NCBI RefSeq assembly: GCF_018448905.1
Contig: NZ_RCWA01000006.1
Span: 116,947-180,946, forward strand
Direction of reading: 5' to 3'
From: Photorhabdus heterorhabditis
Lineage (GTDB): Bacteria > Pseudomonadota > Gammaproteobacteria > Enterobacterales > Enterobacteriaceae
DNA: 64,000 nucleotides
The first letter of the stretch is position 1; every line of letters starts with the position of its first letter. A program made the position numbers and the translations under genes. The notes below the pieces were generated by a model. That model was given only the letters and a program-made list of their open reading frames with translations. It was not told where the DNA came from and did not search any database. This document shows, in pieces, positions 9,210-33,342 of this stretch.

Positions 9210-9277
9210 TCCCTTTAAATTAAACCTCCTTTTAACGACTTTCTCCGTAAAGAACACTTCATATAAGGAATAAATCA

Positions 9278-11781: not shown

Positions 11782-11795
11782 CTTTAAAACGTAAC

Positions 11796-12260: not shown

Positions 12261-12368
12261 TGGTGTGTAATTTTCATTTTTTCATGCTGAATTTTTTATC
12301 GTCATTCTTTCTGGTTTTGCCCAGTATGCTTTTCTGTATCGGGTAATCATATGATTAGACTCTAATCA
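12261..12368 (+). repeat. R1 direct repeat, left copy
   Basis: A 108-bp block that recurs at 34595-34702 in the same orientation with no gaps and about 10 differences (about 91% identity). It ends with the palindromes ATCATATGAT and TGATTAGACTCTAATCA (7-bp arms), possibly a protein-binding site. It starts just after the last pilus gene. The right copy lies just before the first conjugation gene, so the two copies bracket the whole biosynthetic insert plus an IS6 remnant. Confidence 0.85.
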
Positions 12369-12717: not shown

Positions 12718-13248
12718 CTAATTATTATTAAATATGACTTTGTCAGTTAAGATGACCGACGCAAATAGCGCACCAAGAATTTCATTATGATGAGCAACAA
12801 TTTGTTTAGCATCTAATACATCGCCATCACAAGTACTATGGGCATCCCCAACTAGCGTAACATTATAGCCTAATGAGTATGCTCGGCGGCAAGTAGAATC
12901 AATGCAATATTCAGTCTGCATTCCAACAAGTATAATGTTATTAATAGCTAACTCACTAAGAACGCTATGTAATTCTGTTGACTGGAAGGAATCCGGGTGT
13001 TTTTTTTGAATTATTATGTCATTGGGCGTTACGTTTATCTGATCAACAAATTGATAGCCAATATTATTTGTTTCCAACGGATGACATTCCCCTCCACAAT
13101 GTTGCATATATATAATTGGTATTCCAGCTTTTCTAGCCTGACTAATAAGAGAGCTTATATTTTTGATCAATCGTACTTCATCATAAATTGGCTTATCTAA
13201 CATAAACAATCCTTTTTGCATATCTATAATAAGCAAGCCTGATTTCAT
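12718..13248 (-). CDS. Isochorismatase-family cysteine hydrolase
   Basis: A 176-residue single-domain protein of the isochorismatase/nicotinamidase superfamily. The triad is visible: Asp in LLIIDMQKG (D9), Lys in IIQKKHPDSF, and the nucleophilic Cys in MQTEYCIDST. The family hydrolyses amides or vinyl ethers; the EYCIDST context is nearer to nicotinamidase-like amidases than to EntB. No aryl-carrier domain or dihydroxybenzoate genes are present, so a siderophore role is unlikely. As the last gene of the biosynthetic operon, 34 bases after the acylase, it may trim a small amide or remove a by-product. The substrate is unknown. Confidence 0.85.
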   Translation of the reverse strand: MKSGLLIIDMQKGLFMLDKPIYDEVRLIKNISSLISQARKAGIPIIYMQHCGGECHPLETNNIGYQFVDQINVTPNDIIIQKKHPDSFQSTELHSVLSELAINNIILVGMQTEYCIDSTCRRAYSLGYNVTLVGDAHSTCDGDVLDAKQIVAHHNEILGALFASVILTDKVIFNNN

Positions 13249-13282
13249 AATGTGAAATCCTTATATGGTTGTTAATAACAAT

Positions 13283-15616
13283 CTATTTAGATGATGGTTC
13301 AAAAGAAAGTTTTTTTATAAAATTATTATTGTATAATTTAATATAATCGCCCGTTTGCCATAATTGTAACATATCATCATAATTTTTATGTAAAGTATTT
13401 CCTGACTGACCTAGTGATAAAATAAACAGGCTATTATTATCTATATCTGCTAGGTCTATAATTTGTTTATAACCTGGACCAACGGTGTTTTTGAAGTCAT
13501 CATCATATATTCCAACATTTACTGTATACTTCCCGCCACTAGTGGCAATATTCCTGTTCCATAACCAACCTAGCCATGGCGATTCACCAATGACTAATCC
13601 TTTAAATTGGGCTTGGTGTACCCTTCCCCATTGCCATTTCGATAAATTATCTCCATTATCTGATTTAAGCCTAGTCATCGCCGCATGAAGTGATTTAGAT
13701 AAATAATCTGAACAATTTTGTGTAAATTCCGTAAGACAAAAAGAGCCTTCAGAGCTTAGCTGTTTTTTAAGGAATAATGATTCGGACCACTTAAAGGGCG
13801 TATCAATTATATTATTCATTTTGGATAATTCTTCGTACCAATATGACCAGATTGTAGGTTCAATTCTATCCCTAACCATTTCACCATCCCATTTTTGTAA
13901 TTTTTCAAGGGCGACTTCACTAAGATCGTCATTTGGTTTAGTTTTTTCCAATAAGATAGGCATAAAATCTAACCATAAATAACTTTTTACATCATTTTGA
14001 AGCTTCTTTGTATCTTCAATATTGATTTTTTGACTATTTATGATTGTATCGGTAATACGTTTTGCGCGGTAGGGGGGAACATTCCAGCTGCTGGTGAGTG
14101 AAAACGGATATTGTTCAGAAATAATTTTGTTATTTGCTGATATAATATAACCCTTTTCTGGATTTAAAACATGGGGCATCTCATTGAAGGGAATATATTC
14201 TGTCCAACTACCGCTATTTACTGGAAATCTCGGGTCGATATTGTTCCTAATTGGTATCCTTGCAGCCAGATAATACCCAATGTTACCTTTTATATCTGCA
14301 TAGAGAAAATTTTGTGCGGGTGCAACATATTCGCTTAAAGATAATTTAAATTCTTCCCAGTTATTTGCATACCCTAATGCTATTAGTGCTTGCACAGATT
14401 TATCACTAGGCATAAGCGCTGGCCACTTTATTGCAATATCTTTTCCAATCCTATTTATAGGTTCTATGCTACTAATAACAGGGCCTTCATCACTTAATTT
14501 TACAGAATAGAGTACGTCCTGTTTGTTTTTTACCTTGATTCTTTCTTCAATTATCACTTGGTTTGAAGGATTAATGAATAAATCTTGATTGTCAATGACT
14601 GCGGCAGTAACTCCCCAAGTAATATTTTTATTGTGTCCAATTACTATCGATGGGAAACCGGGAATTGTTGCTCCGGTTACGTTTAAATTAGGTCCTTGCA
14701 TGGTAGCTAAGTACCATAAATTAGGTGCAGAAAAAGATAAATGAGGATCGTTTGCTAATATTGGTTTCCCTGTTTCTGTATGTTGCCCAGAGATAACCCA
14801 AGCATTAGAACCAAGACCATAAGACTCCACGGATCTAATATAAGAACTAATTTTTCCATCAAACAGATCTTTCTTCTTAATATTCTTTATTGTAGATATA
14901 TTAGTACTAACACTATGATTTAACTTATTGCTTTCCCTTATAGAAGAAGTCCAATCACTATCAGAAAGTGTGATAGGCGCATCTTTGGGGTAGCTTATGC
15001 TTGCAAGATTAAATTTTTCTTGGCCAAGTTGTGTTATCACAAGATAGTTCTTTAATTTTTCCTCCCAGGCACGATCTAAGTTCCAAGCTAACATTTTTTG
15101 CCAGGATATAGTATCAATATTCGTCCAGGGTTCTGGCTCATATCCTAATAGTAAAATTTCGATAGGGTACTTTTTTAACTTTAAAAATTCATTAACGCCA
15201 GCAGTATAACTTTCTATAATTTTTTGAGTATTATCATTCAAAACATCGAGTGACGACTTGGCCGCTCGTTGAAATTGCCAGGTTCTAAGAATCTTGTCAT
15301 TATCAAGCGCTTCCTCCCCGAAGATTTCACTGAGCCTACCCTGAACGATACGCCGCTGGACCTCCATTTGCCAAAATCTATCTTGTGCATGAGTAAATCC
15401 TAAAGCGAAGTAGGCATCTAAATCGTTTGATTCGGCTTTTATGCGAGGAATACCTAGTTCATCGCGCGCAATAGTAACTTTTCCGTATAACCCTTTGAAT
15501 TTAATCTGCCCGTCATGTTTTGGACTGGTCGAGTTGTACAGATAGCCGACTAAGGCAATAAAACCGAAAGTTGAGAAACAGAACAGGAAAAAAAAATATT
15601 TAAACAATTTTTTCAT
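13283..15616 (-). CDS. Penicillin acylase-family Ntn hydrolase
   Basis: A 777-residue acylase precursor. An N-terminal hydrophobic segment (YFFFLFCFSTFGFIALVGYLY, residues about 7-27) acts as a signal anchor or Sec signal, so the enzyme works in the periplasm. The alpha-chain motif is residues 72-82 (LGFTHAQDRFW). Autoprocessing is expected at G269|S270 (YGLGSNAWVISG), giving Ser270 as N-terminal nucleophile of the beta chain. NDPHL follows and later NKNITWGVTAA. Members cleave N-acyl groups (penicillin G acylase, PvdQ). Lying inside an NRPS/PKS operon, it most likely removes an N-acyl cap from the exported product (prodrug activation); alternatively it could be a self-resistance acylase. The residue positions are direct; the role is inference. 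Confidence 0.88.
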   Translation of the reverse strand: MKKLFKYFFFLFCFSTFGFIALVGYLYNSTSPKHDGQIKFKGLYGKVTIARDELGIPRIKAESNDLDAYFALGFTHAQDRFWQMEVQRRIVQGRLSEIFGEEALDNDKILRTWQFQRAAKSSLDVLNDNTQKIIESYTAGVNEFLKLKKYPIEILLLGYEPEPWTNIDTISWQKMLAWNLDRAWEEKLKNYLVITQLGQEKFNLASISYPKDAPITLSDSDWTSSIRESNKLNHSVSTNISTIKNIKKKDLFDGKISSYIRSVESYGLGSNAWVISGQHTETGKPILANDPHLSFSAPNLWYLATMQGPNLNVTGATIPGFPSIVIGHNKNITWGVTAAVIDNQDLFINPSNQVIIEERIKVKNKQDVLYSVKLSDEGPVISSIEPINRIGKDIAIKWPALMPSDKSVQALIALGYANNWEEFKLSLSEYVAPAQNFLYADIKGNIGYYLAARIPIRNNIDPRFPVNSGSWTEYIPFNEMPHVLNPEKGYIISANNKIISEQYPFSLTSSWNVPPYRAKRITDTIINSQKINIEDTKKLQNDVKSYLWLDFMPILLEKTKPNDDLSEVALEKLQKWDGEMVRDRIEPTIWSYWYEELSKMNNIIDTPFKWSESLFLKKQLSSEGSFCLTEFTQNCSDYLSKSLHAAMTRLKSDNGDNLSKWQWGRVHQAQFKGLVIGESPWLGWLWNRNIATSGGKYTVNVGIYDDDFKNTVGPGYKQIIDLADIDNNSLFILSLGQSGNTLHKNYDDMLQLWQTGDYIKLYNNNFIKKLSFEPSSK

Positions 15617-15637
15617 AAAAGTCTATTTCCTGAATTA

Positions 15638-16798
15638 TTAGATAGGATTAATTTGGTATATTGGAAAATAAGTGTCTAAACTTTCATATAAACCGAGCTT
15701 AGAAAGATGGGGGATGTCATCCCACTGCCATATTTTATCGGTTATAGGGGGGAGCCAACTATTTGTTTCTGCAAAGGTAACAGCGTCTAGGCCTTCTTCA
15801 TAAGAAGCATAATGTGTGTGAACATGAGTGTGGCGCTTAATACACTCCACAGCCCGGGAAGAGGTCAGATGCATTCCTTTTTTCCAACCGGACGTTGTTA
15901 TTACGCCTGGAGAAGCTAATGCCTTTAATGTTGCCCTGAACACTGGAAAACCTACTAGATCCATGAAAATAGCAACGCCTTTTTCAGAAGTTTTTTCGTT
16001 AATAATATTTAAGAAGGTTTTTTCAGCTTGCCGATAATTTTTTTTGAAATTTTTATCCGTGTTATAAAGTTCCTCATTATAAGCCAGATCGCGGAATAAG
16101 TTCCTATCGATTGAGTCAAGACCGACATCTGTAATATATTTTAACATCGTTTTTTTCGATGAAATAAGTCCTGCATTAAAACCATGAATTTTTGCTAGAG
16201 TGACAAAGGCAAATGAAACTCCGCCTCCCCAAGCACATACATAGGCATCAGAATATGCAGCTTTATTGTTTTTAATGTTAGCCAGCCAACAGTTATAAGA
16301 TACTTGCCAGTTTGACCAGGCTGTAATATAACGTAAAGAAAAAGCAGCCCACTGTGGTAGCGTATATTTTGAGTTTTCAGGTATTGGAATAAGATATTTA
16401 TGATGTAACTTAACTTTTTTCGATAATAATCCTATTGTATTAGGTTGATCATAGGCATAAATTTTTTTCGGAAATTTATCATTTCTTGTATTTTCACCAC
16501 AAAATAAAATACAGATCATACCTTCTCGTAAATGTTTTATAGTATTACCAACCTTGAGAATGCGAACAACACCTGAATTACCAATAACAACTTTGTCCTC
16601 CTTTCTTTCTTTACAGATGTCAATTGGTTGGCGTTCTAAAGCGTGTTCCATATTACCTTCCCAGCATCCATAAAGAGGTTCAGCTAACACTTCCTCCGGC
16701 TCAATATCTTTAATATAGATCATTTCTCTTTCAAGATTTTTCCTTTCAAGCCCCTTGTATAACATCCATACTTCTACTTGTTCCATGTTATTCTCCAT
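15638..16798 (-). CDS. MDR-superfamily protein, crotonyl-CoA reductase-like
   Basis: A 386-residue protein. The N-terminal half (about 40-160) resembles the GroES-like domain of crotonyl-CoA carboxylase/reductase relatives: EPLYGCWEGNMEHALERQPI and NSGVVRILKVG. The second half shows a Rossmann-like entry (VCAWGGGVSFAFVTLAKIHGFNAG) and then a region with VAIFMDLVGFPVFRATLKAL. Zinc-ligand Cys clusters of alcohol dehydrogenases are absent. It could reduce an enoyl or similar intermediate in trans, or tailor the released product; no enoyl step is otherwise encoded. The start (16798 or the ATG at 16786) overlaps the upstream NRPS stop, so it is translationally coupled. The exact activity is unknown. 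Confidence 0.65.
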   Translation of the reverse strand: MENNMEQVEVWMLYKGLERKNLEREMIYIKDIEPEEVLAEPLYGCWEGNMEHALERQPIDICKERKEDKVVIGNSGVVRILKVGNTIKHLREGMICILFCGENTRNDKFPKKIYAYDQPNTIGLLSKKVKLHHKYLIPIPENSKYTLPQWAAFSLRYITAWSNWQVSYNCWLANIKNNKAAYSDAYVCAWGGGVSFAFVTLAKIHGFNAGLISSKKTMLKYITDVGLDSIDRNLFRDLAYNEELYNTDKNFKKNYRQAEKTFLNIINEKTSEKGVAIFMDLVGFPVFRATLKALASPGVITTSGWKKGMHLTSSRAVECIKRHTHVHTHYASYEEGLDAVTFAETNSWLPPITDKIWQWDDIPHLSKLGLYESLDTYFPIYQINPI

Positions 16799-19700
16799 TA
16801 GTAGCAGATGATATATTACTAGTACTCTCGATTAGAATACGGCTTAACTCTGTAACTTTATCTTTTAGGAAATAATGACCAGCATTTTCTATTACAACTA
16901 AATCAACTTGGTCACTAAAAGCGCTCCATTCTTTATATTTTTTCATATAATTTGGTGTCAATGGGTCATTTCCTCCAATAATACACGTAATTGGAGATTT
17001 TAATTTTTCCTTTGATTTAAGGTGATTATATATATAGTCTTCAGCCCAATTAGCATCACGAACAAATGCTTCTGTCACAAAAGATAATTTTGTTGGATCT
17101 CCTATCTCTTCAATTCCCCCTAACTTTTGTATGTAATTCAATATAGCTTGTTGGTTCCTAAATGGATTAACTAGTTGAATATTACCTATTGCTTTTAATA
17201 ATTTGTTTCTTGCCCATGGCAATGCGGCACCAATAAATGTTCTTTCAACCTTAAAACCATTTTTTTCCAATTGCTTAGCAATTTCAAGAGCCAAAGCAAC
17301 GCCAGCACAATGCCCGTAAAGATAAAGAGATATTGTTTCCCCAAAAACAGTTTTTAACTCATTTGTGCACTGTTCGGCGATGCTTTCTATAGACTTGTTG
17401 TTATTTTGAGTATCTGGAATTGCTACTGCGTATACATTAAACTTATGTTCGATTAACTTTGCTAAATATTGATAAATAACTGCACTCCCTCCGCCATAAG
17501 GTACACATACAATCGTTTTCTTTTCTTCAGCATGATTAGCATTGGTTGAGAACTGATATATGAGCTTTTCATTTTTTTGGCAAGAGCTATAATTATCAAT
17601 CTTAGTAGCTAGCTGAGAAATAGTTGGATTTCTCATTAAATCGATCACATTAATATTAATAGGTAGTTTTTGTATTACTCTGATTAATTTTAAAGAGTTG
17701 CCTCCTATCTCAAAAAAATCATCATCTATAGATATTGTTTCAACATCTAAGATTTCTTTCCAAATTGCGGTGAGCATTTTTTCTGTTTGAGTTATAGGAA
17801 GAGTAATGTCTTGACGTAATTCAATTTTTGAATAGCACCACTCTTGTAATTGCCGTCTATCAACCTTACCGTTAGGCGAAAGAGGGATTTTTTCGATAAA
17901 GACTATATGAGAAGGTACCATGAATGTAGGAAGGTAATCACTAATATGGCTTTTAATTTGTGTAACTGTAGTTTCCACTTTTGGAGCCATAATAATAAAT
18001 GCAGCTAAACTCTTCGAAGTATTCTCATTATTGAGAGTAATTACTAGCGAATCTAAAACACCAGGTATTTTTTTTATAACGTTGGCAATTTCTTCCAACT
18101 CAATTCTTAGGCCATGAATTTTTACTTGGCTGGTATCTATACGGCCAATTAATTCAATATTCCCATCTGGCATCCAACGAGCTAAATCTCCAGTTCTATA
18201 AAGTCGCTCTCCAGTAATGTTAGAAAAAGGATTAGGTATAAATTTCTCTGCTGTTAAAGAGGAGTTGTTTATGTATTCTTTGGCTAACCCTATTCCGCCT
18301 ATATATAGTTCACCTTGCATACCCATTGGTAGCGGCTGCAATGTTTTTGACAATATATAGGCCGTTTGATTTTTCATTGGATGTCCATAAGGGATACTCT
18401 TCCAGTGGTCTTGAATAGACTTCACTGGGTAGATTATGGAGTGGATAGAGGCTTCTGTAGCACCACCGAGGACTACGATCTCTGAGTTAGGTATCACCTC
18501 TTCTTTAATATTCTTTAACAATGGTATAGGGGCCCAATCACCACCTAAAATTATCAATCTAATTGATTGAATTTTATATCTATCTACGATTTTTATTGAT
18601 TCTATTAACAGAGACAATATTGCTGGAGCTGAATTCCAGACACTTATGTTAAATTTTTCAATTAGTTCAACCCAGTGACGCGGATCTTTATGTTTACTTC
18701 TTTCTGGTATAACTACAGCCGCACCGGCAGCTAGAGTACCAAAAATTTCATAGACAGACATATCGAAGCTTGTTGATGAAATTAATATTAGCCGATCGCT
18801 TGGTTTGAGAGAAAAATTTAAGTTTAAGTCGAGCAGGTTATTTACAATTCCTCGATGTTTGATTGCAATTCCTTTAGGTCTTCCTGTCGAACCTGATGTA
18901 TAAATTACATAGGCCAAACTTTCAGGATCCGCATGATAAGAGAGTTTAGAGTCGGTCGGTAGACTATTATTGTTTGCTTCTTCTACAATAAGTAATTGTC
19001 TATTATTTTCTTCGGTATTGATATTTTTAACATACTTTTTCTGAGTAACTATCGTTGCTACCTCTGCATTATCTAGCATGTATTGTAATCTTTCTTCAGG
19101 ATAACTAGAGTCTAGAGGAAGATAAGCAGCGCCTATTTTTAAAATAGCAAGCATATATTGAATTAATTCTGTGGAAGGATCTACACAGATTGCTACTATC
19201 GCTCCAGGCTTTACACCAAACTGATAAAGAGCTTGTACAGTCAGATTAACTTTATGAGACAGCTCAGAATAAGTTATAACCTGTTCCCCGTCATAAACGG
19301 CAACTGCTTGTGGGTTATTGGCTACCTGCCTTTCAAAAAGTTCATGCAGTTGAATATTTTCTATCGGTATTGTTGTATTATTGACTTTTGCTAGGAAATA
19401 CTCGTCACCTTGATTAAGTAAATTCAATCTATTGATATTTATTGCCGGATTTGTGATTATTTTTTCTAATAAAATATTAAAACGTTGGGTAATACTTCTT
19501 GCCGTTTCTTTTTTATAAAGATCAGTATTGTATTCTAATACAGCTTTAACGCCGTTATCTGATTTAATTAAATGTAATAACAAATCATATTGTGCAATGT
19601 TTTTTTCAGGTGAAATCATTTCTGAAAAAAGATTATTCATTGTATCAACTTCTAAGTCTGCATTGTGGAATACGATCATCATTTGTACTAAAGGGCTAAA

Positions 19701-20873: not shown

Positions 20874-20924
20874 ATATTATGATCTAAACATCATTTAACT
20901 CTAATTACTAAAATCAGCAACATG

Positions 20925-22247
20925 CTATACATGATATAGTGGAAATTGATCGCACAGAGCTTTTACTTGGTTAACAGCTTTGTTCTTTATATTTTCATCC
21001 AATCGGAATTGTGTATCGGATATTACGGTTGTGTGGGTTAGAATCTCATTAATAATTTCAGTGCATTGTTTTAATTCTGGTTGACCAAGTCCTCTAAAAG
21101 CTAAGGAATTTGTACCAAAACGTAACCCACTTGCTATCATTGATGATTTATTATCTCCGGCAATACGGTTTCTATTAACAATGATGTTACATTTTTCCAA
21201 TGATTTTTCTGCGCAATATCCTGTAATTCCTCTGTCAAGCAGATTAACTAAAACCATATGATTATCCGTGCCTTGAGTAATAACGTTGTACCCTAATTCG
21301 ATTAAATTATTGGCTAATGTATTAGAATGCAAGATAACGTTTTTCATTAACAAAGCGAATTCTTTACTATTAACAAAATCCAAAGCCCTTGCCTTTCCTG
21401 CAATAGCATTTAAGATCGGCGTCCCTTGATAAAACGGAAATACTGCTTTTTGCAGTTTTTGGGATAATGTGACGTTTTTTTCTACGCAGATATCATAATC
21501 TTTACCACATAAAATCAATCCTCCCCTAGGGCCGTATAATTGCTTATATGTACTAGTTGTTGTGATATGGGCATGGTCTATTGGACTCATGTGTAGCCCG
21601 GAAGCAACAAGGCCGGCTATATGAGAAATATCAGCTAATAAAAAGGCGTTGATCTTATCTGCTATCTTTCTGAATTTGGCAAAATCTATTTTCCTCGGAT
21701 ATGAGCTTGCACCACAAATAATAAGTTTTGGTTTGCAATGTAAAGCTATATCTTCTATTTGTTCATAGTCAATATATCCTTTTGGATCAACTCCATAAGA
21801 GTAGACTTCAAAATATTTAGCAATAGCAGAAACCGGAGCACCGTGAGTTAAGTGACCACCGCTACAAATATCCATCCCCAAAATGCGATCTCCTGGATTT
21901 AGCAAGCCAAAGATTACAATTTCATTACTGGAGGAACCTGAATGAGGTTGGACATTTGCATATTTGGCGCTAAATGCGCTTTTTGCTCTTTCAACAGCTA
22001 ATTCTTCAATTTGGTCAACAAACCTACAACCTCCATGATAACGTGAATTCGGATAACCTTCTGTTGTAACATTGATTAATGTCGTATTTTCACAAGCAAT
22101 AACGCTTGGTAGGGCAACACTTGCCGATGCTACCATTGATAGAGCATTTTTTTGGCGCTTAGATTCTTTGTTTATCAATGAACTTAATAAAGGATCTTCG
22201 CTTTCCAATAAACAAGATGATTGTTGTTGTGATATAGAGTTAATCAT
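20925..22247 (-). CDS. SHMT-like PLP enzyme with altered active site
   Basis: A 440-residue fold-type I PLP enzyme, clearly homologous to serine hydroxymethyltransferase along its length (EGYPNSRYHGGCRFVD, ANVQPHSGSSSN, GGHLTHGAPVS, GPRGGLILC). Retained, aligned to E. coli GlyA: PLP Lys (K235 = K229), Asp206 (D200), His132 (H126), Glu63 (E57) and the carboxylate Arg in SGLRFG. Changed: Y55 to Thr61, Y65 to His71, and H228 to Tyr234 (TTSTYK in place of TTTTHK). It is about 20-25 residues longer than GlyA. The operon context and these substitutions argue for a dedicated biosynthetic role, such as aldol or transaldol formation of a beta-hydroxy amino acid, rather than folate metabolism. It overlaps the PKS stop by 8 bases. 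Confidence 0.85.
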   Translation of the reverse strand: MINSISQQQSSCLLESEDPLLSSLINKESKRQKNALSMVASASVALPSVIACENTTLINVTTEGYPNSRYHGGCRFVDQIEELAVERAKSAFSAKYANVQPHSGSSSNEIVIFGLLNPGDRILGMDICSGGHLTHGAPVSAIAKYFEVYSYGVDPKGYIDYEQIEDIALHCKPKLIICGASSYPRKIDFAKFRKIADKINAFLLADISHIAGLVASGLHMSPIDHAHITTTSTYKQLYGPRGGLILCGKDYDICVEKNVTLSQKLQKAVFPFYQGTPILNAIAGKARALDFVNSKEFALLMKNVILHSNTLANNLIELGYNVITQGTDNHMVLVNLLDRGITGYCAEKSLEKCNIIVNRNRIAGDNKSSMIASGLRFGTNSLAFRGLGQPELKQCTEIINEILTHTTVISDTQFRLDENIKNKAVNQVKALCDQFPLYHV

Positions 22248-25200: not shown

Positions 25201-26886
25201 AGTTTCAAACAGCTCTTGTCCGATTCTTAGATAATGTGTGCCACCACCAGGAAACATGAAAACCACTTTGTCGTTGTTAATTTCCTTTGTGGCAGATGTT
25301 GAATGAAGAAGTTCCTGCAAACGTTTAATGGCCTCGGTTTTATTATGACATACTAATGAAACTCTTGAGTCAAATTGACTCCGGCCAATTTGATAAGTAT
25401 AAGCAATATTTGCTAAGTTAGGAGAGTTCTCTTTTTCTAGAAAATGGCATAATTCTTGACACATTACAGCCAGATCGGTAGCACGTTTAGCAGACAAAAT
25501 AATTAGGTGTGGATTTTTTTTATTATTGGTTGAGTTTATATTATGGTCTTGGTACTCCTTTAGAACAATATGTGCATTAGTTCCACCTATGCCAAAAGCA
25601 CTAATGCCGGCATACTTTTCCCTAGCACAGATGGTATTCCATGATGTTAGCTTTGTATTGACATAAAATATATTTTCTTCAAGTCTTAATTTTGGATTTG
25701 GTTTATCAAAGTTAAGCGATGATGGTATTATTCCTTTATTTAGGGAAAGAGAAGTTTTAATTAAACCGGCTATTCCAGCGGCGATGCCAAGATGACCGAT
25801 ATTTGTTTTTACGGAACCGATCAGACAAGGAGAAATTCTATTCTTGCTTGCGTAAGCTCTTTTTAAGGCAGATAACTCAATTGGATCGCCTAATATTGTT
25901 CCTGTTCCATGCGTTTCGATATAAGTGACGTCTTCTGGGTTGACACCAGATATGTTCAATGCAGTATTAATTGCTGTAAATTGTCCTTCTTCACTTGGTG
26001 CAGTGTATCCAATTTTACCACTGCCATCATTATTGATACATGATCCTTTGATAATGCAATAGATATGATCTTTATCTTCAATTGCAGAAGCCAATCTTTT
26101 TAATACTACAATGCCTAACCCATTACCGTCAGTTGTCCCTTGGGCTTTTTCATCAAAAGCTCGGCAATGTCCATCAGGAGAGAAAAAACCGCCTTCTTGA
26201 TAGAGGTAACCGGTTTGTGAAGGGATAGAAATCGAAACACCACCTGCGAGAGCTATATCAGACTCTCCGCTTAGAACACTTTGACATGCCATATGGACAG
26301 CAACTAAAGAGGTCGAACAAGCTGTTTGAATATTAACACTTGGTCCAGTTAAATTGAGTTTATATGATACGCGAGTAGGTAAATAATCTTTATCGTTTGA
26401 CAACATTAGATGTAGACCGCCGACCGGGTCGATATCTCCTGGATTCGAATACAGATCTATTAAGTAAGTGTTCATTGCAGCACCAGCAAACACGCCAATA
26501 TTACCGTTGTATCTTAGAGTGTCATATCCGGCATCTTCTAATGCATGAAAGGCCGTTTCTAAAAATAACCGGTGTTGAGGATCGAGTAATTCGGCTTCAT
26601 AAGGAGTATACCCAAAAAATTCTGCATCAAAAAACTCAGAATTTTCAATACTACCTTTTGCAGGTACATAATTAGATTGCTTTATAACTTGTTTTTTAAC
26701 GCCGAGTGCCAATAATTCGTCTTCGGAAAAGAATTTTATAGACTCTTTCCCTTCACATAAATTAGACCAGAACTGATCGATATTGTCAGCTTCCGGAAAT
26801 CGTCCTGCCATTCCTATAATAGCTACATCATTAAGCATATCATCACACGTTAATTCATTTTCAATATTCATGTTGCCATGCTCCAA
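22240..26886 (-). CDS. Type I PKS module KS-AT-KR-ACP
   Basis: A 1548-residue single module. KS about 14-440 with Cys in TACSTSLVA, His in IETHGTGT and His in KTNIGHL. AT about 545-840 with GHSLGE; the specificity loop reads TAGHSH where HAFH or YASH usually stands, and I favour malonyl but not firmly. The structural plus catalytic KR spans about 870-1400, with TGGLGRVG, Ser in MSSLSAILG and Tyr in YSAYASAN. ACP about 1440-1510 (FFEIGGHSL). No dehydratase, enoylreductase or methyltransferase. It would extend the prolyl intermediate from the upstream NRPS by two carbons and reduce the keto group, giving a statine-like beta-hydroxy unit. The start directly follows the NRPS stop. Confidence 0.94.
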   Translation of the reverse strand: MEHGNMNIENELTCDDMLNDVAIIGMAGRFPEADNIDQFWSNLCEGKESIKFFSEDELLALGVKKQVIKQSNYVPAKGSIENSEFFDAEFFGYTPYEAELLDPQHRLFLETAFHALEDAGYDTLRYNGNIGVFAGAAMNTYLIDLYSNPGDIDPVGGLHLMLSNDKDYLPTRVSYKLNLTGPSVNIQTACSTSLVAVHMACQSVLSGESDIALAGGVSISIPSQTGYLYQEGGFFSPDGHCRAFDEKAQGTTDGNGLGIVVLKRLASAIEDKDHIYCIIKGSCINNDGSGKIGYTAPSEEGQFTAINTALNISGVNPEDVTYIETHGTGTILGDPIELSALKRAYASKNRISPCLIGSVKTNIGHLGIAAGIAGLIKTSLSLNKGIIPSSLNFDKPNPKLRLEENIFYVNTKLTSWNTICAREKYAGISAFGIGGTNAHIVLKEYQDHNINSTNNKKNPHLIILSAKRATDLAVMCQELCHFLEKENSPNLANIAYTYQIGRSQFDSRVSLVCHNKTEAIKRLQELLHSTSATKEINNDKVVFMFPGGGTHYLRIGQELFETLPIFQKTFKQCSDLLLTQLKLDLCSALYSGDLPSEEIETLLEKTSISLPLIFSIEYSLACQLMHWGIQPHSMIGHSLGEYVAACISGIFSLEDAIYLVACRSRLLEEISGEGAMLCIMCSAEKTLEYLDGTELSLAVINSPNQTVVSGHPEEVQKLVARLDKNRIAYYKIPIHTAGHSHLVEPVLKSFEEVLQTIKFGLLTIPYVSNVTGTWITQEEAQSKKYWLEHLKNTVNFSAGISKLLKDDYQIFLEVGPGRALTTLIKDHNPISPILAINCMKRAKSNDSDSSILLNAVGKLWETGVTVDWSKFNEENKFSRVSLPKYPFQRKYFSRARKPELPALLNDQLSSSIAIEKSKNIDRWLNIPIWKEAILLSQEKKPECVLVFLHKEDSISCQLLSKIQRIAENTIIVYSGAEPYEKAENTFYINPGDHSHYDKLFSELDKEGKTPDVIVNLWLIPNYTFNEKVDTVLIDYSFYSILYIAKCLSQYAIGKDIALYYFTCQLATFNIYDIPNALKSLILGPSKSISQEYPNITVQCVDIPTESEDPQYYLDALIKEVFSEPENSNFIYRQGKRWKQNYITLPTTDAVKNTSALKYKGVYFITGGLGRVGLILAEYLATHFNAKLVLLTHSDFPPEEEWDRIVSQVESNPKIINCINKLSQLKKLGSEIMVIKADVASKEQMSEAINQTLAKFGKINGVIHGAATVGERAVRSVTELNRNDLELQLNTKIYGTLALANALDNVELDFCILMSSLSAILGGLGYSAYASANAFMDAYSHNKGRPWVSINWDLWDTNDGKVFGKSLSKLPMSPSEGAEVFHRITGLVTFSQIAVSTGNLNSRINQWVNREGLQLHDKIAGNDVSCLTTYPQYTSQYVTPANSLETVIVNIWQELFGIAEIGVETDFFEIGGHSLLAVRLVSRVRDVLKIDFPLRELFKEPTVRAMSEKLEEIGHKNGINIHEISDLLIRISGLSEDEVKKEIWKELND

Positions 26887-29800
26887 TTAGGATTTATTCT
26901 TCTGCTTTCGCAGGAGAAACTGTTTACGTAATATTAATTTTTCACTTGCAATTCTTTGGTTTTTATTTGTTTCTATGTGTGGTGTGTTTAAATATTTACT
27001 TATTGAAGATACGGTTGTGTATTTGAACATTTCAATTAAGTTAATTTCTTTATTAAATTCTTTAGATAAAGCATTTTGTACTCGAACCATCGCTAGGGAG
27101 TTACCGCCAACATCAAAAAAATTATCGGTTATACTGAATTTATCATGACCTAATACTTCTTGCCAGATAAGAAATACTTTCCTTTCATACTCATTAAGGT
27201 TTTTGTTATTAACCTTTTTAACTTCATTTTCTTCTTTGACACTTAGTAGTTTTTTTCTGTTAACCTTACCATTGGCCGTGATTGGTAATTCTTTAACTAT
27301 AAATATTTTTGCCGGAAGCATATAATCGGGTAAGGATTCTTTTAAGTCGTTAAATATAATTTCTATATAATTTTCACTGGATAAATTAGTTTCATTCACT
27401 ATACAAAAAGCGACAATTCTTACTTCTTCCTGACCTAAAGGCTTATTAATAACCGCAGCTTTTTTTATATGCTTAGATTTATCTAATACTGATTCTATTT
27501 CCCCTAATTCAATTCTAAATCCTCTGTTCTTTATTTGATAATCCTGCCGACCGATATATTGAATATTACCGTCAAATCTCCAATATCCCATATCACCGGT
27601 GCGGTATAAATTAAAATCATCATTGGAATACGGATTAAAAAGGAATCTAGCAACGGTTTCATCTACTTTATTTATATAGCCAGGCGAAACAGGTATACCT
27701 CCAATAAAAATTTCACCGATTCCTCCTATAGGTAATGGCTGAAGATTTGAGTCTAAGATATATATCTCAGCATTTCTTATTGGCTGACCAATTGGCGGAG
27801 AATCAGGCCATGTTTCTGGCTGTCCGGTTAGGATAAATTCTGTTACAACATGCGTTTCTGCTGGACCGTAGTGGTTATGAAGGTTTGCACCTGGTAATTT
27901 AGAAAAGAAAGTCCTTATTGCTGGTGTGACGACTAATTTTTCACCTGCTGTAATGACATGCTTTAGCTGTTTAGGAAATATATTAATACTTGTTGCTGTT
28001 TCAGATAAAATATTTAGTGCTACATAAGGTAAGAAAATTCGCTCTATTTTTTTGTTATCAATATACGATGATAGCCATCTAAAATTACTTCTCTGATCTT
28101 CATGAATGATATGCAATGTACCACCACAAGATAAGGTGCTAAATAACTCTTGAAAAGAGACATCAAATGTTAGAGGTGAATAATAGAGTGTTGATATCGG
28201 TGTGTCTTGTTTCAAATCAGCAATATGATAATCAATTAAATTTGATAGACATCCTCTAGTTATGCCAACACCTTTAGGTTCGCCGGTCGATCCAGAAGTA
28301 TAAATAATATAGGCTAAATCAGTTGTATTAAAATTATTATTTCTTTCTATATAACCGTTACTTATATTAAGATTAAATGCACTGTGAAGAAGCTCGGCCA
28401 CTTGACAGCATTGTATATTAGAATAGTCATAACTCTCAATTTCGCCAATCTGTTCGCTAATAAGAATAGCAGGAGTGACATCATGTAAGATTGATAAAAT
28501 CCTATTTTTAGGCATGGCGTTATCAATAGGAACACATATAGCACCAATTTTTAATACAGCTAATATAATTTTAATTTGTGATTCAGAACGTTGAAGACAA
28601 ATTGCAATCTTGTCTTGCTTTTTTATTCCTAATGACTGTAAATATCTAGCTAATATTTCGACTTCTTTGGCTAATGTTTGATAATCAATTGAAGTGTGTG
28701 TCTTATTGTCAATAATTGCAGTATTGTTAGGGTATTGGGTAGCCTGCTCTTCAAATCTTTGAATAATATCTTTTTTAAGATTATATTTTTTATTGCTGCC
28801 GCTATATTCAGTTAATATATTACTTTTTTGTTTAGAACAAATAAAATCTATTGAACTTAGTTTTTTATCAATATTTTGAGTAAGTTTTTCCAATAAGTTT
28901 TTATAATTATCAATAATATTAATGATGCTTTTTTCAGTAAAAAGATCGGTACTATATTCAATGTATCCTCGTAACCCTTGTATTGTCGGATTTAATGAAA
29001 GCGTTAGATCATATTTTGCAACATTCAATTGAGGATCAATTAATTCTATTTTTAGGGGACTTAAATCTATGTTTCTTGGTAGTGTGTTTTGTAGAACAAA
29101 TAATACCTGAAATAAAGGAGTATAACTTAAAGAACGTGTCGGGTTGATAGCTTCAATAATAGATTCAAAAGGTACTTCTTGGTTTGAAAAATCTTTTAAT
29201 GTATTATTTTTAATAATGTTTAGAGTTTCATGGAAAGTAAATTTCTCGTCCAACTCTGTTCTAATAGCGAGCGTGTTAACAAAGAACCCAACAATATCTT
29301 CAAAATCTGGGTGACTTCTATTGGCAACAAGTGTTCCTACAACAATATCTTTTTGACCAGTATACCGGAACAGGAGGGTTTTTAGAGCCGCTAATAATAG
29401 CATAAATAATGTCACGTTATGTTCATTGCATAATAGATTTAATCTATCACTTAGCTGTTTGGATATGGATAAACTTGCTCTTTTACCCTGGTGACTGAAG
29501 ATGGGGGGTCTAGGATAATCTGTTGGTAATGAGAGAAGTGCAGGTGATCCTTCGAGGCGTTTTTTCCAATAATTAATTCCTTCTTTTATATATGATGAGT
29601 TTAATCTTTCATTTCGCCAAACAACATAATCGCTGAATTTATATTTCAAAGGCGGTAGGATTCCAGAATCTTGTACTACATAATTTTTATATAATATGGC
29701 AAATTCTTTTAAAAGAATTCCCATAGACCATCCGTCTGAAATGATATGGTGTAGAGAAACAACCAGTATATGTTTTTTTTTCTTGATACTAATTAATAAA

Positions 29801-32800
29801 GCTCTAAATGGAGATTCTTCTTCCAACTTGAAATATTTATTACTTTCATTAGAAATTATATCTGAAATACTCTCTCTCTTTAGGTTCTCTGAAGTAGAAA
29901 GGTCTATAACCTGGAAATTCAAATGGGGATCTTTATCATATTGCTGAATAGTTACTCCGTCAGTATCAATAAATCTTCCTTGTAGTGTTTCATGTCGTTT
30001 AGTCAGCTGTTCTAAAGCATATTTGATAGCAATAACGTTAACTTCTCCGTTAAGCATAAAGGCCTCAGAGATATTATAAACAGGGCTTTGCTTATTTAAC
30101 TTATATAGAAACCAAAGTCTTTTTTGGGCATCTGAGAGTGGGGATTTTAATGACAATAATTTAATATGTGATGGTGTTGGCTTAATACTTATAGCATGAG
30201 TATTTTTAATTATGTTATTATCAATAAATTCTGATAGGCTTTTTATTGTAGAGTGTTCAAAAATAGAACGAATTGATAGGGTGATTTTTAAACAGTCTTC
30301 TATACGATAAATAACTTTTGTTGCCGTTATAGAATCACCGCCTAGTTCGAAAAAAGTTTGTTCATGAGTTAGGCTGGATATGTCCAGTATATTCTTCCAA
30401 ATATTAGCTACTTGCTTTTCAGTTTCTGTGAAACTCTCTTCATCATATTTTTCAACAACCCCACTTTGGGGTTTCAATATTGATATTTTTTTTCTGTCTA
30501 TTTTTCCACTTGGTAATGTAGGAAATTGTTGTAAGGCAATAAAGTGTGTAGGTACCATATAATATGGAAGATGAAGCTGTACTTGCTGACGTATTATTGT
30601 TGGATCTACGATATTCTTATTTTTAGTTATATAATAGGCAAATAGTTGTTTCCCATTATTATTTTCAACCACAACAACGATTGCTTTAGCAATTTTCTCT
30701 TCAAGCTCAATCGCTTTTTCTATCTCACCTAACTCTATTCTATGCCCCCGGACTTTTACTTGAGAATCACAGCGACTTATATACTCTAGCACTCCATTTT
30801 TTCCTGATTTAACTAAATCACCGGTTTTATATATTATTGATGAGAGTTTATTGCTATAGTTTGAAAAAGGATTTTGTAGAAAATTTTTCTTCGTTAAAAT
30901 CCCCTGATTGAGATAACCTTGACCAACGCCTAGCCCTCCAATATATAACTCTCCTATAACGCCAGTGGGTAGGAGGTTAAGGTCTTTATTGAGGACGTAT
31001 AATTCAGTATTATTAAAAGGATAACCTATTTTAATTGCTTGATCGTTTGATAGTTTATAAACAGTAGACCAGATTGTAGTTTCTGTAGGGCCGTAAACAT
31101 TCCAAACATTTGGGCTGATGTTAAGCAAACCATTTTTCACACTTGTGGTAAGAGGTTCCCCACCGCATAAGATTTTTATTTTATTTTTGTAACCAGTTAG
31201 AAAAGTTAGAATGCTTTCCCAAAAGGTGGGCGTTGCTTGCACGAACGTAGGTTTCTTTTGCTTTATAAATTCACTTATTTTTTTAAAGTCATTTTTATCG
31301 GATTGGTCATAAAGTATGTATTTCCCTCCGGTCAATAAAGGTAATAATATTTCTAAAAGAAAAATATCAAAGCTCCAGGAAGTTATACCCAAGAAACTAT
31401 CTTCTTTTTGAAAATTAAATTCTATAATAGCACTGAGAACAAAGCTTATTATATTCGTTTGGGTGATTTTTACACCTTTTGGCTTCCCTGTAGAACCAGA
31501 TGTATAAATGACATATGCTAAATCGTCCGGTGATATTGGATAATTAATTACTGCATTTTTTACTTGGGATTTTATTGAATCCACACAAATTAAGTCACAG
31601 TTAATTGATTTTAGCGAATTATTATTATTAAACACGTTTGTATTTGTGAGAATCAATTCTAAATCAGCATCTTGGCTGATATATTTTAATCTTTCTTCTG
31701 GATATCCTGGATCAAGGGGTAAATATCCTATACCCAATCTTAATACTGTTAATATGGAAACAACCATGTAATAATTACGATCAAAGCATAATCCAATTAA
31801 CTTTTTATTTATATTGGATTTTATCAATTTTTCTTTTAAGAAATTTGTTAGGGAATTTATTTCTTGATTCAACTCTGCATAGGTTAATTTTATATGGCTT
31901 GTTTCTATCGCAACATGATTTGGTACCAACGACACTTGCTTATTAAATAGATCATAAATTGTTAAGTTAGGTAATCTATCTATCCTAGGCTCTATATTTA
32001 TTTGAATTTTTTCTTTTAATCTCTGATCTTCGAGAATTTGCATGTTTCTGATTTTACTATCTGGATTTTTGAGCATATTTTCGAGCAAAGTAGTGAAATT
32101 ATGTGCCATCTCAATAATATATTCGTCGCTAAATAGAGCGGTTTTATACTCAAATGCAAACTGAAGAGAATCACCTTCGTCATAGATGAAAGTAAGATCG
32201 TCCTTGGAGGTTTTTGTATCAATAAGAATAGACTCAGAACAGGCATTGGTGAAATTAAGGCCTGAAGTTACAAAATTTGTCCTTAAAATAGATACATTAT
32301 ATAATCTGAGTATGGAGGCATTTTCTTGTTTTCTAAGCGACCTTAGAATTATATTAGTAGGAACATTCTCATATTGACGAGCATTCTTACGGTTCTTTTT
32401 TATACGTTCAAGTAATTGTGAAAAAGTTAGATCACCATTGAGTTTTATACGCATTGGCAATTGGTTTAAAAGACAGGCAAATAGATTGCTAAACATTTTA
32501 TTTCTATTTGATTTTGTATAACCTAACGTTATGTTATCTTGCCCGGTATAGTAACGAATTAATATGCTAAAAAGACCAGTTAATAAAATAAAAGTAGTTA
32601 CTCCTACTTTTTTAGAAATAATTTTTATTCTATGGGTTAATTCGTCTGAAATATCAAAATAATATCTTTTCCCATTGAAATCATATGTTGTTTCTTCGGC
32701 AATTTTATCATGTAGATTGATAAGTAATTCAGTCCCTTTTAATTCAGAAAGCCAAAATTTGATTCCTTCTTTAAATCCTTCAGATTTATTAATAAGATTC

Positions 32801-33342
32801 TCTTCATAATCTAGGTAATCATTAATTGAGATATTTATATTTGGCAAAATGACACTATTTTTTATAATGAATTGATTATAATGGAAAGATAAATCTTGTA
32901 GAATAAAGTTTGCAGAATATCCATCGGTAATAATATGATGCAAGTTAAAAACTAAATAAAATTTTTCTGATGAGAGTTTAATTAGGCAAAATTTAAATAA
33001 GGGTGCTTTTGTTAAATCAAATGGTTTACTAATAATTTTATTTATGGTGTCTATTTTAACTTCGTTTTGTTTATATGAAGGAATGTCTGTTAAATCCACC
33101 AATTCCATTTCAGGAACTAAATCATCCAGAATCTTTTGAAAAACTTTATCATTGACTTCTATAAAAACTGTTCTCAATGTGTTGTGTCTTTTCACTACTG
33201 AAGCCAAAGCTGAATTTAATGCACTAACATTTATATTACCTTGTATTTTGAATACTAAAGGAGTATTAAATGCAGGGCTATTGGGAGTTAGTTTCCATTC
33301 AAAAAAAAATCGTTCTTGGGTATTTGATAATAACATTGGCAT
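26887..33342 (-). CDS. NRPS, C-A(Gly)-T-C-A(Pro)-T
   Basis: A 2151-residue bimodular synthetase and first gene of the operon. C1 about 1-440 (HHIITDG) is N-terminal, so it is a starter condensation domain that could load an acyl group. A1 about 455-960 has pocket residues D-I-L-Q-L-G-V-I-W-K read by eye, one change from the well-known Gly code. T1 FFELGGDSI. C2 about 1060-1500 (HHIISDG). A2 about 1515-2040 has pocket D-V-Q-F-I-A-H-V-V-K, matching Pro. T2 FFDVGGNSL, feeding the PKS. There is no epimerase or methyltransferase. Predicted chain: acyl?-Gly-Pro. Very AT-rich relative to the pil/tra genes. The start is at 33342 (MPMLLS); an ATG two codons later is possible. Confidence 0.94.
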   Translation of the reverse strand: MPMLLSNTQERFFFEWKLTPNSPAFNTPLVFKIQGNINVSALNSALASVVKRHNTLRTVFIEVNDKVFQKILDDLVPEMELVDLTDIPSYKQNEVKIDTINKIISKPFDLTKAPLFKFCLIKLSSEKFYLVFNLHHIITDGYSANFILQDLSFHYNQFIIKNSVILPNINISINDYLDYEENLINKSEGFKEGIKFWLSELKGTELLINLHDKIAEETTYDFNGKRYYFDISDELTHRIKIISKKVGVTTFILLTGLFSILIRYYTGQDNITLGYTKSNRNKMFSNLFACLLNQLPMRIKLNGDLTFSQLLERIKKNRKNARQYENVPTNIILRSLRKQENASILRLYNVSILRTNFVTSGLNFTNACSESILIDTKTSKDDLTFIYDEGDSLQFAFEYKTALFSDEYIIEMAHNFTTLLENMLKNPDSKIRNMQILEDQRLKEKIQINIEPRIDRLPNLTIYDLFNKQVSLVPNHVAIETSHIKLTYAELNQEINSLTNFLKEKLIKSNINKKLIGLCFDRNYYMVVSILTVLRLGIGYLPLDPGYPEERLKYISQDADLELILTNTNVFNNNNSLKSINCDLICVDSIKSQVKNAVINYPISPDDLAYVIYTSGSTGKPKGVKITQTNIISFVLSAIIEFNFQKEDSFLGITSWSFDIFLLEILLPLLTGGKYILYDQSDKNDFKKISEFIKQKKPTFVQATPTFWESILTFLTGYKNKIKILCGGEPLTTSVKNGLLNISPNVWNVYGPTETTIWSTVYKLSNDQAIKIGYPFNNTELYVLNKDLNLLPTGVIGELYIGGLGVGQGYLNQGILTKKNFLQNPFSNYSNKLSSIIYKTGDLVKSGKNGVLEYISRCDSQVKVRGHRIELGEIEKAIELEEKIAKAIVVVVENNNGKQLFAYYITKNKNIVDPTIIRQQVQLHLPYYMVPTHFIALQQFPTLPSGKIDRKKISILKPQSGVVEKYDEESFTETEKQVANIWKNILDISSLTHEQTFFELGGDSITATKVIYRIEDCLKITLSIRSIFEHSTIKSLSEFIDNNIIKNTHAISIKPTPSHIKLLSLKSPLSDAQKRLWFLYKLNKQSPVYNISEAFMLNGEVNVIAIKYALEQLTKRHETLQGRFIDTDGVTIQQYDKDPHLNFQVIDLSTSENLKRESISDIISNESNKYFKLEEESPFRALLISIKKKKHILVVSLHHIISDGWSMGILLKEFAILYKNYVVQDSGILPPLKYKFSDYVVWRNERLNSSYIKEGINYWKKRLEGSPALLSLPTDYPRPPIFSHQGKRASLSISKQLSDRLNLLCNEHNVTLFMLLLAALKTLLFRYTGQKDIVVGTLVANRSHPDFEDIVGFFVNTLAIRTELDEKFTFHETLNIIKNNTLKDFSNQEVPFESIIEAINPTRSLSYTPLFQVLFVLQNTLPRNIDLSPLKIELIDPQLNVAKYDLTLSLNPTIQGLRGYIEYSTDLFTEKSIINIIDNYKNLLEKLTQNIDKKLSSIDFICSKQKSNILTEYSGSNKKYNLKKDIIQRFEEQATQYPNNTAIIDNKTHTSIDYQTLAKEVEILARYLQSLGIKKQDKIAICLQRSESQIKIILAVLKIGAICVPIDNAMPKNRILSILHDVTPAILISEQIGEIESYDYSNIQCCQVAELLHSAFNLNISNGYIERNNNFNTTDLAYIIYTSGSTGEPKGVGITRGCLSNLIDYHIADLKQDTPISTLYYSPLTFDVSFQELFSTLSCGGTLHIIHEDQRSNFRWLSSYIDNKKIERIFLPYVALNILSETATSINIFPKQLKHVITAGEKLVVTPAIRTFFSKLPGANLHNHYGPAETHVVTEFILTGQPETWPDSPPIGQPIRNAEIYILDSNLQPLPIGGIGEIFIGGIPVSPGYINKVDETVARFLFNPYSNDDFNLYRTGDMGYWRFDGNIQYIGRQDYQIKNRGFRIELGEIESVLDKSKHIKKAAVINKPLGQEEVRIVAFCIVNETNLSSENYIEIIFNDLKESLPDYMLPAKIFIVKELPITANGKVNRKKLLSVKEENEVKKVNNKNLNEYERKVFLIWQEVLGHDKFSITDNFFDVGGNSLAMVRVQNALSKEFNKEINLIEMFKYTTVSSISKYLNTPHIETNKNQRIASEKLILRKQFLLRKQKNKS

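What the first reader, a model, noticed from the sequence alone, without database searches (positions are those of the whole stretch)
12718..33342. Possibly new NRPS-PKS pathway: (acyl)-Gly-Pro-C2(OH)-X with Cys thioesterase, SHMT homologue and acylase
Seven coupled genes define one assembly line. Pocket codes read by eye: D-I-L-Q-L-G-V-I-W-K (Gly) and D-V-Q-F-I-A-H-V-V-K (Pro). These are followed by KS-AT-KR-ACP (a statine-like prolyl unit), then an unassigned C-A-T-TE. Known principle: order of modules gives order of building blocks. I do not recognise this combination from any characterised Photorhabdus/Xenorhabdus product. The C domain at the very start and the periplasmic acylase together suggest an N-acylated prodrug that is deacylated on export.
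Basis: partly seen in the sequence, partly recalled or inferred. Interest (0 to 1): 0.9.

Follow-up and report, generated by a model that had tools for sequence, protein, structure and literature searches.

The report
Orphan Photorhabdus β-lactone-type peptide cluster
A mobile element in two Photorhabdus genomes carries seven genes that probably make a small peptide ending in a rare, doubly substituted serine closed into a reactive four-membered ring, perhaps masked by an acyl cap that a dedicated enzyme removes.

Summary
In detail: seven adjacent minus-strand genes (33342-12718) encode C-A-T-C-A-T / KS-AT-KR-ACP / SHMT / C-A-T-TE, a reductase-like protein, a penicillin-acylase-fold protein and an isochorismatase-fold hydrolase. 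Gly and Pro codes are as read.

The SHMT is PbzB-type (Thr/His where GlyA has Tyr55/Tyr65), the type that makes 2-hydroxymethylserine or alpha-methylserine, and not an ObaG-like transaldolase. The TE has Cys in GHCAG and its Asp in the ObiF1/SulM position. Best reading: N-acyl-Gly-Pro-C2(OH)-[alpha-methyl- or alpha-hydroxymethyl-Ser], released as an alpha-amino-beta-lactone, then deacylated. The acylase's best plasmid hit is RenL of the renieramycin plasmid, which favours the prodrug idea.

The cluster (GC 34%) is cargo between pil and tra genes (GC 49-50%) of an SPI-7-like conjugative element; the pilO marker is in 9 of 13 Photorhabdus genomes, the cluster's markers in 2 of 13, the window's own included. 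Azospirillum B510 has a like-ordered but divergent line. The papers seen describe no such cluster; MIBiG could not be run. All chemistry is inferred.

The parts
26887..33342 (-). P0001, NRPS C1-A1(Gly)-T1-C2-A2(Pro)-T2, 2151 aa
   Evidence: translation; Pfam; codes read by eye, meaning recalled
31993..33342 (-). N-terminal C1 domain, HHIITDG, proposed acyl-loading starter
   Evidence: starter role inferred from position only
22240..26886 (-). P0002, PKS KS-AT-KR-ACP
   Evidence: Pfam; KS ACSTS, AT GHSLG, ACP GGHS motifs
20925..22247 (-). P0003, PbzB-type serine hydroxymethyltransferase; Thr61, His71, Tyr234, Lys235
   Evidence: comparison with PbzB as described in PMC10098953
16788..20873 (-). 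P0004, NRPS C3-A3(DMYNIGLIHK)-T3-TE
   Evidence: Pfam; code
16833..17516 (-). TE domain; Cys1189 (17307-17309), Asp1303 (16965-16967), His1333 (16875-16877)
   Evidence: alignment to ObiF1 (6n8e, E 8.9e-27)
15638..16798 (-). P0005, distant crotonyl-CoA-reductase-like protein, role open
   Evidence: 43 bits; no Pfam hit, no PDB sequence hit at 0.001
13283..15616 (-). P0006, penicillin-acylase-fold amidohydrolase, hydrophobic N-terminus, nucleophile Ser270 (14807-14809)
   Evidence: best plasmid hit RenL
12718..13248 (-). P0007, isochorismatase-fold cysteine hydrolase
   Evidence: IDMQ, KKHPDSF, CIDST motifs
1474..12251 (+). type IVb pilus (pil) part of the conjugative element
   Evidence: Pfam
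34725..56633 (+). conjugative transfer (tra) part: TraD/G-like, DUF4400, DUF3438, TraC, TraG_N
   Evidence: Pfam (8 ORFs of this stretch scanned)
12261..12368 (+). direct repeat D1, left copy, at the cargo edge
34595..34702 (+). direct repeat D1, right copy (92%)

Best explanation
[quoted passage not shown] P0001 C1 takes an acyl group (inferred), A1 loads Gly, A2 loads Pro. P0002 adds one malonyl unit (assumed) and reduces the ketone, giving a 3-hydroxy-3-(pyrrolidin-2-yl)propanoyl unit (inferred from domains). P0003 makes a doubly substituted serine, alpha-methylserine or 2-hydroxymethylserine, from Ala or Ser/Gly and methylene-tetrahydrofolate (inferred from its residue pattern). A3 loads it, C3 couples it, and the Cys/Asp/His TE closes its CH2OH on the acyl carbon, so the chain leaves as a four-membered lactone with a quaternary alpha carbon (inferred from TE type). 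The exported acylase P0006 then removes the acyl cap, freeing the glycyl amine outside the cytoplasm, so that the producer is not exposed to the active form (inferred). P0005 and P0007 are tailoring or protective enzymes of open role. The cluster travels as cargo of an SPI-7-like conjugative element. Rough odds for the steps: X doubly substituted Ser 0.75; beta-lactone release 0.6; acyl cap removed by P0006 0.55.
For: Domain order and gene order. SHMT: Thr and His at GlyA Tyr55 and Tyr65, with E57, Y64, H126, S175, D200, H203, K229, N347 and R363 kept. PMC10098953 (abstract, passages, parts 2 and 3 of 5 of section 3) reports PbzB T68/H78 at these sites, 2-hydroxymethylserine formation in vitro, no detectable activity of the T68Y/H78Y double mutant, and names FmoH, AsmD and XvbB as the same type. 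A Y55T change in another SHMT raises donor acceptance of D-Ser (PMC4761611, passages). A3: best PDB matches in the pocket region are BmdB, 6lta (recalled as FmoA3, alpha-methylserine) and PchE; PbzD-A2, which is proposed to load 2-hydroxymethylserine, likewise falls in the Cys clade. The code DMYN-x-G-x-IHK stands in the A domain that follows a Thr55-type SHMT in Streptomyces L010, L014, L039 and Pseudonocardia L012. TE: best PDB match ObiF1 (97 bits), then the SulM TE (62); Cys, His and the Asp at position II (D1303 over ObiF1 D1254), Ala at position I; PMC11298585 and PMC6668435 connect this arrangement with beta-lactam/beta-lactone closure (passages). The like-ordered Azospirillum line has a Thr55 SHMT followed by C-A-T-TE(Cys). 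Acylase relative RenL. Cargo: GC 0.338 vs 0.498 and 0.493, no counterpart in the same backbone in G203.
Against: No product, no assay. A3 agrees with BmdB (DLYNLSLIWK, a Cys code by recall) at 6 of 10 places and with 6lta (DAYNVSSCWK) at 4 of 10, as I read them (the tenth letter assumed), so Cys or Ser is not excluded. Two relatives with a Thr55 SHMT carry other A codes (Azospirillum DICHVDAIDK; Staphylococcus about DMFAVACNWK, in an NRPS two genes on). Asp at position II is also found in type II editing TEs such as RifR and RedJ, and such TEs score only a little below SulM here (6vap 55, RifR 47 bits). In benzobactin the condensation is proposed to use the OH of 2-hydroxymethylserine, and the word lactone does not occur in the main text of that paper, so a PbzB-type SHMT beside a T-TE protein need not mean a beta-lactone. 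Cys TEs can close other rings (BulbE). No acylase homologue was seen in the 40.7 kb Azospirillum stretch. The starter role of C1 is unproven.
Confidence: 0.5

Rival explanations
1. Same line, but the TE hydrolyses or closes a larger ring, so the product is a linear acid or macrocycle with an alpha,alpha-disubstituted serine and no strained ring.
For: Benzobactin A from a PbzB-type pathway was isolated together with its methyl ester, not as a lactone (PMC9177418, passages); a Cys TE can make an indolylamide (PMC11536411, passages); type II editing TEs share the Asp position.
Against: Cys plus Asp at position II with Ala at position I matches ObiF1/SulM, while BulbE-TE uses Asp988, 27 residues after its Cys and so probably position I (my inference); the chain is short, as in obafluorin and sulfazecin.
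Confidence: 0.25
2. P0003 is an ordinary SHMT duplicate that only tops up glycine for A1; X is Cys or Ser.
For: 42% identity to GlyA with folate residues kept; A3 code nearest to a Cys code.
Against: Thr61/His71 replace both Tyr residues, residues reported as crucial in PbzB; the genome has a normal glyA; the gene sits directly before the module of X.
Confidence: 0.12
3. Obafluorin-like logic: P0003 is an L-threonine transaldolase that makes a long-chain beta-hydroxy amino acid, which the TE closes to a beta-lactone.
For: ObiF1-like TE.
Against: The SHMT-like protein near the ObiF-like TE in G833/L030 is only 21.8% identical to P0003, the fluorothreonine transaldolase model gives 80 bits against a cut-off of 650, and ObaG is reported 25% identical to true SHMTs whereas P0003 is 42% to GlyA.
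Confidence: 0.04
4. The acylase does not unmask the product but trims something else, for example a signal lactone. Not exclusive of the readings above.
For: The fold covers penicillin, cephalosporin, D-succinyl and homoserine-lactone acylases.
Against: It lies inside the operon with 21 and 34 base gaps, occurs in the same 2 of 13 Photorhabdus genomes as the cluster, and its best plasmid hit is RenL, last gene of a biosynthetic plasmid.
Confidence: 0.3

Closest known systems
Benzobactin (pbz/xvb) pathway, PbzB/XvbB SHMT
   Same: PbzB-type SHMT next to NRPS genes, A domain of the Cys clade; in the benzobactin-like Staphylococcus locus L011 a T-TE protein with Cys lies directly before the SHMT
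   Different: No benzoxazolinate genes here; Gly, Pro and a PKS module here; benzobactin is proposed to couple through OH and no lactone is mentioned in the main text
Obafluorin synthetase ObiF1/ObaI
   Same: TE with GHCAG and Asp at position II, N-acyl-alpha-amino acid release
   Different: Amino acid made by a transaldolase; aryl cap; no PKS module (recalled)
JBIR-34/35 (FmoH, FmoA3)
   Same: SHMT of the same type (per PMC10098953); 6lta among the best matches of A3
   Different: FmoA3 has a cyclisation domain and forms 4-methyloxazoline (recalled); here C3 carries the ordinary HHMVFDG
Azospirillum sp. B510 pAB510a, about 741.7-757.5 kb (no annotation held)
   Same: C-A(DLFNNALTYK, Gly by recall)-T-C-A-T / KS..T-T-C / Thr55 SHMT / C-A-T-TE(Cys)
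   Different: Second A code DAWTVAGVCK, no AT or KR in its KS protein (a KR lies in the next ORF), extra C domain, different last A code, no acylase in the stretch
Renieramycin plasmid, RenL
   Same: Acylase 44.6% identical over 93%
   Different: Otherwise another assembly line; P0001 C1 is 25% identical to RenE
Sulfazecin synthetase SulM TE
   Same: Cys nucleophile, Asp at position II
   Different: QCN motif, beta-lactam through an N-sulfonated amine; no gene for such a step seen among the seven

Membership tests
PbzB-type SHMT | SHMT fold and PLP lysine | tested here: met
   Pfam SHMT 1.3e-125, Lys235 aligned to K229
PbzB-type SHMT | Thr and His at GlyA Tyr55 and Tyr65 | tested here: met
   Thr61, His71; motif reads TTEG..RYH, the paper gives TAEG..RYH
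PbzB-type SHMT | Forms 2-hydroxymethylserine or alpha-methylserine | not testable with these tools
   needs enzyme assay
L-threonine transaldolase (ObaG type) | Sequence clade apart from SHMT, about 25% to SHMTs | tested here: not met
   42% to GlyA; 21.8% to the relative in L030; no tree was made
ObiF1/SulM-type four-membered-ring TE | Cys nucleophile (GXCXG in ObiF1) | tested here: met
   GHCAG, Cys1189
ObiF1/SulM-type four-membered-ring TE | Asp after strand 7 (position II), none at position I | tested here: met
   D1303 aligned to ObiF1 D1254, A1216 at position I; by sequence alignment, no structure made; also true of some type II TEs
ObiF1/SulM-type four-membered-ring TE | Forms beta-lactone or beta-lactam | not testable with these tools
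   needs assay
Benzobactin cluster | Three-gene benzoxazolinate cassette | tested here: not met
   none of the seven proteins matches an anthranilate synthase, Fe-S dehydrogenase or phenylacetate-CoA ligase family in the lists shown
N-acyl prodrug pathway with penicillin-type acylase | Exported Ntn-type acylase with intact nucleophile in the operon | tested here: inconclusive
   Ser270 and HNxxxxW present, gene in the operon; export judged by eye from the N-terminus only
N-acyl prodrug pathway with penicillin-type acylase | Starter C domain loading an acyl group | tested here: inconclusive
   C at the N terminus with HHIITDG; in a tree of 14 C domains, none a proven starter, it paired with C2 of the same protein (support 0.94)
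SPI-7-like conjugative element | pil operon and transfer genes with cargo between | tested here: met
   the name SPI-7-like is recalled
SPI-7-like conjugative element | Integrase and attachment ends | not tested
   element ends not located

The most novel reading that the evidence does not exclude
A new natural-product class: acylase-unmasked Gly-Pro-polyketide peptides ending in an alpha-quaternary (alpha-methyl or alpha-hydroxymethyl) serine beta-lactone, built by pairing a PbzB-type SHMT with an ObiF1-type TE, with a divergent counterpart in Azospirillum, and spread between Photorhabdus species on a conjugative element.
Probability: 0.4. Interest if true: 0.75.

Novelty: new variant of a known kind. 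Interest (0 to 1): 0.58.

Why it matters
In the papers seen, NRPS TE closure to a beta-lactone rests on obafluorin, and the SHMT route to doubly substituted serines on a few pathways (benzobactins, JBIR-34/35, perhaps ashimides). A cluster that joins both would give a testable route to quaternary amino-beta-lactones, a covalent warhead type, with a built-in unmasking step. The A-domain code DMYN-x-G-x-IHK after Thr55-type SHMTs in Photorhabdus and in Actinomycetota offers a genome-mining key for such residues.

Tried and rejected
Looked for more copies: P0005 in 198 family genomes (1 hit, own), 13 Photorhabdus (2, own included), 369 class genomes at 1e-30 (1, own); P0003 in 398 phylum genomes at 1e-112 (4: own and three with the GlyA motif YAEG..RYY), 13 Photorhabdus at 1e-108 (2), 392 family genomes at 1e-108 (2, both Photorhabdus). 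The sets overlap. No other copy appeared, but which species were drawn is not shown. The single genome-contig scan used short exact peptides of P0005 and so finds only close copies.

P0005 relatives in Burkholderia (L004, L005) sit in a locus that, where scanned (L004), holds a CoA transferase and MmgE/PrpD; in Embleya L006 and Azospirillum L007 they lie by PKS/A-domain genes. This did not fix its role. A supply of a dicarboxylic acyl unit was considered (the acylase's first PDB hit is D-succinylase) and left as speculation.

C-domain subtype by tree: uninformative. AT specificity: where I recall HAFH or YASH the sequence has TAGHS, so malonyl is assumed. KR stereochemistry: not assigned. Promoter/terminator scan of 12250-12760: one promoter-like site against 3.2 in shuffles, no terminator. 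7qcw, the best PDB match of P0003, which shows the same Thr/His pattern, could not be tied to a paper. The renieramycin paper is not held, so RenL's function is recalled.

Selection: of 242 plasmid records with an SHMT match (40 listed) I opened 7, the top six rows and H30; Thr55 in 6 of 6 where it could be read, His65 in 5 of those 6; in L013 the motif was not read. Of 90 records with a TE match (25 listed) I used 8, plus the 2 non-own genome hits. Rows annotated as stand-alone alpha/beta hydrolases, and the TE matches in L010, L014 and L039, were not checked for their nucleophile. L010 and L039 look like near relatives and may not be independent. The Staphylococcus T-TE protein has no Pfam thioesterase hit; its TE rests on tblastn (25%). 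No structure prediction was run.
Full report
What is there. The window lies in what is very likely a Photorhabdus genome: P0005 finds P. noenieputensis DSM 25462 at 99%, and window 1447-33535 aligns to that contig at 98.6% over 32,089 bases. Seven ORFs run on the minus strand from 33342 to 12718 with gaps of at most 51 bases.

Building blocks. A1 reads DILQLGVIWK and A2 DVQFIAHVVK (by eye; Gly and Pro by recall). A3 reads DMYNIGLIHK. In the pocket region its best PDB matches are BmdB (2.8e-47), 6lta (1.7e-38) and PchE (1.5e-37, where PchE is listed as dihydroaeruginoic acid synthetase). By my reading of those alignments BmdB is DLYNLSLIWK and 6lta DAYNVSSCWK, so A3 lies in a Cys-like group and is nearer to BmdB; PMC10098953 reports the same surprise for PbzD-A2, proposed to load 2-hydroxymethylserine.

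The SHMT. P0003 is 42% identical to the genome's own GlyA. It keeps E57, Y64, H126, S175, D200, H203, K229, N347 and R363 (GlyA numbering) but has Thr for Tyr55, His for Tyr65 and Tyr for His228. All 5 homologues aligned there have Thr at 55 and 4 of 5 His at 65, the Pseudonocardia one keeping Tyr; a sixth (L039) has both. PMC10098953 (abstract, passages and parts 2 and 3 of 5 of section 3) shows that PbzB, with T68/H78 at these places, makes 2-hydroxymethylserine in vitro and that the T68Y/H78Y mutant is inactive; it groups FmoH, AsmD and XvbB with PbzB. PMC4761611 (passages) reports that Y55T changes SHMT donor range. So X is most likely alpha-methylserine or 2-hydroxymethylserine; which of the two cannot be told.

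Link between SHMT and A3. In Streptomyces L010, L014, L039 and Pseudonocardia L012 the A domain after the Thr55-type SHMT reads DMYN-L/M-G-L/M-IHK. With the window that is 5 of 7 SHMT-A pairs read; Azospirillum and Staphylococcus differ, and L013 is degenerate and only partly readable.

The TE. By phmmer the best PDB match is ObiF1 (97 bits), then 8w2c and 8w2d (62, 57 bits), of which 8w2c is named in PMC11298585 on the SulM TE, then other thioesterases including RifR (55 bits and less). The alignment places P0004 C1189, D1303 and H1333 on ObiF1 C1146, D1254 and H1284 (paper numbering; the chain index is 20 higher at all three), and Ala at ObiF1 Gly1173. PMC11298585 (passages) says that among structurally known NRPS TEs only ObiF1 and SulM have the Asp at position II, that both use Cys, and that some type II TEs share the position; PMC6668435 (passages) ties the GXCXG motif to beta-lactone formation. 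All 11 TEs aligned, the window's included, have Cys and an Asp at that place, but they were picked from longer lists (see Tried and rejected). Three of the 11 loci carry a Thr55-type SHMT (window, Staphylococcus L011, Azospirillum L027), and one (L030) a distant SHMT-like protein beside what looks like an obafluorin line.

Azospirillum. On pAB510a, ORF 4992-11372 of L027 is C-A-T-C-A-T with codes DLFNNALTYK and DAWTVAGVCK, then a KS..T-T-C protein without AT or KR, a Thr55-type SHMT, and C-A-T-TE. The order resembles the window's; the sequences are far apart, 41% in the last A domain.

Acylase. P0006 aligns to penicillin-type acylases with residue 270, Ser, at the first residue of many mature beta chains. 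It occurs in the same 2 of 13 Photorhabdus genomes. Its best plasmid hits are four RenL records, 44.6% over 93%, the last gene of the 33 kb plasmid of Candidatus Endohaliclona renieramycinifaciens. I recall that pathway as using an N-acylated precursor; the paper is not held.

Mobile context. Left of the cluster stand pil genes, right of it tra genes. GC is 0.338 in the cluster, 0.498 and 0.493 beside it. PilO at 89% identity or more is in 9 of 13 Photorhabdus genomes, the cluster's markers in 2 of 13, own included. In G203 the backbone aligns at 89-97% on both sides but window 12381-34572 has no counterpart in the 39.9 kb compared; smaller stretches on the right (40480-44065, 57335-59925) are also missing. 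A 108-base direct repeat flanks the cargo and a second pair of 98 bases (87%) lies inside it. So the cluster looks like exchangeable cargo. The ends of the element were not located.

Print search. The listings show no paper on this cluster; apart from the papers named, only titles and abstract starts were seen, and searches listed 20 of 34 and 15 of 804. The 45-genome survey PMC9177418 (passages; section 14) does not name noenieputensis in its main text; its supplements were not searched. Subscription papers, MIBiG and preprints were not searched.

Judgement. The parts are each known; I know of no described pathway that combines them. It is best called a new variant of a known kind. The product, its ring, its cap and its target are all unproven.

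Noticed in passing
L011 (S. epidermidis FDAARGOS_1361 plasmid) 6114-21399: A benzobactin-like cluster (T-TE, SHMT, NRPS, phenylacetate-CoA ligase family, anthranilate synthase I and II) with a YcaQ-family DNA glycosylase; the word Staphylococcus does not occur in the main text of PMC10098953.
   Followed up: partly
L010, L012, L014, L039: Actinobacterial plasmid loci with a Thr55-type SHMT followed by a DMYN-x-G-x-IHK A domain; the two with annotation (L010, L012) also hold SidA-type monooxygenase genes, so perhaps hydroxamate products with a doubly substituted serine.
   Followed up: partly
L023, L024, L025, L026, L028, L029, L031: NRPS lines with TEs that carry Cys (GHC) and Asp at the ObiF1 position, with no match to P0003 in the stretch: Embleya, S. 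clavuligerus, Caballeronia, Streptomyces, Vibrio and an unnamed family member; a wider family of such TEs.
   Followed up: partly
L004 and L005 around 19300-21200: A P0007-like hydrolase next to a P0005-like reductase recurs in two Burkholderia; in L004 a CoA transferase and MmgE/PrpD follow.
   Followed up: partly
window 133-1041 and 57984-59018: AbiTii and Abi_2 domain proteins, likely phage-defence genes in the element.
   Followed up: no
window 10534-11781: Shufflon-type pilus protein (Shufflon_N) near the end of the pil operon; no recombinase looked for.
   Followed up: no
window 34292-34604: Short ORFs that look by eye like a broken IS transposase at the right edge of the cargo.
   Followed up: no
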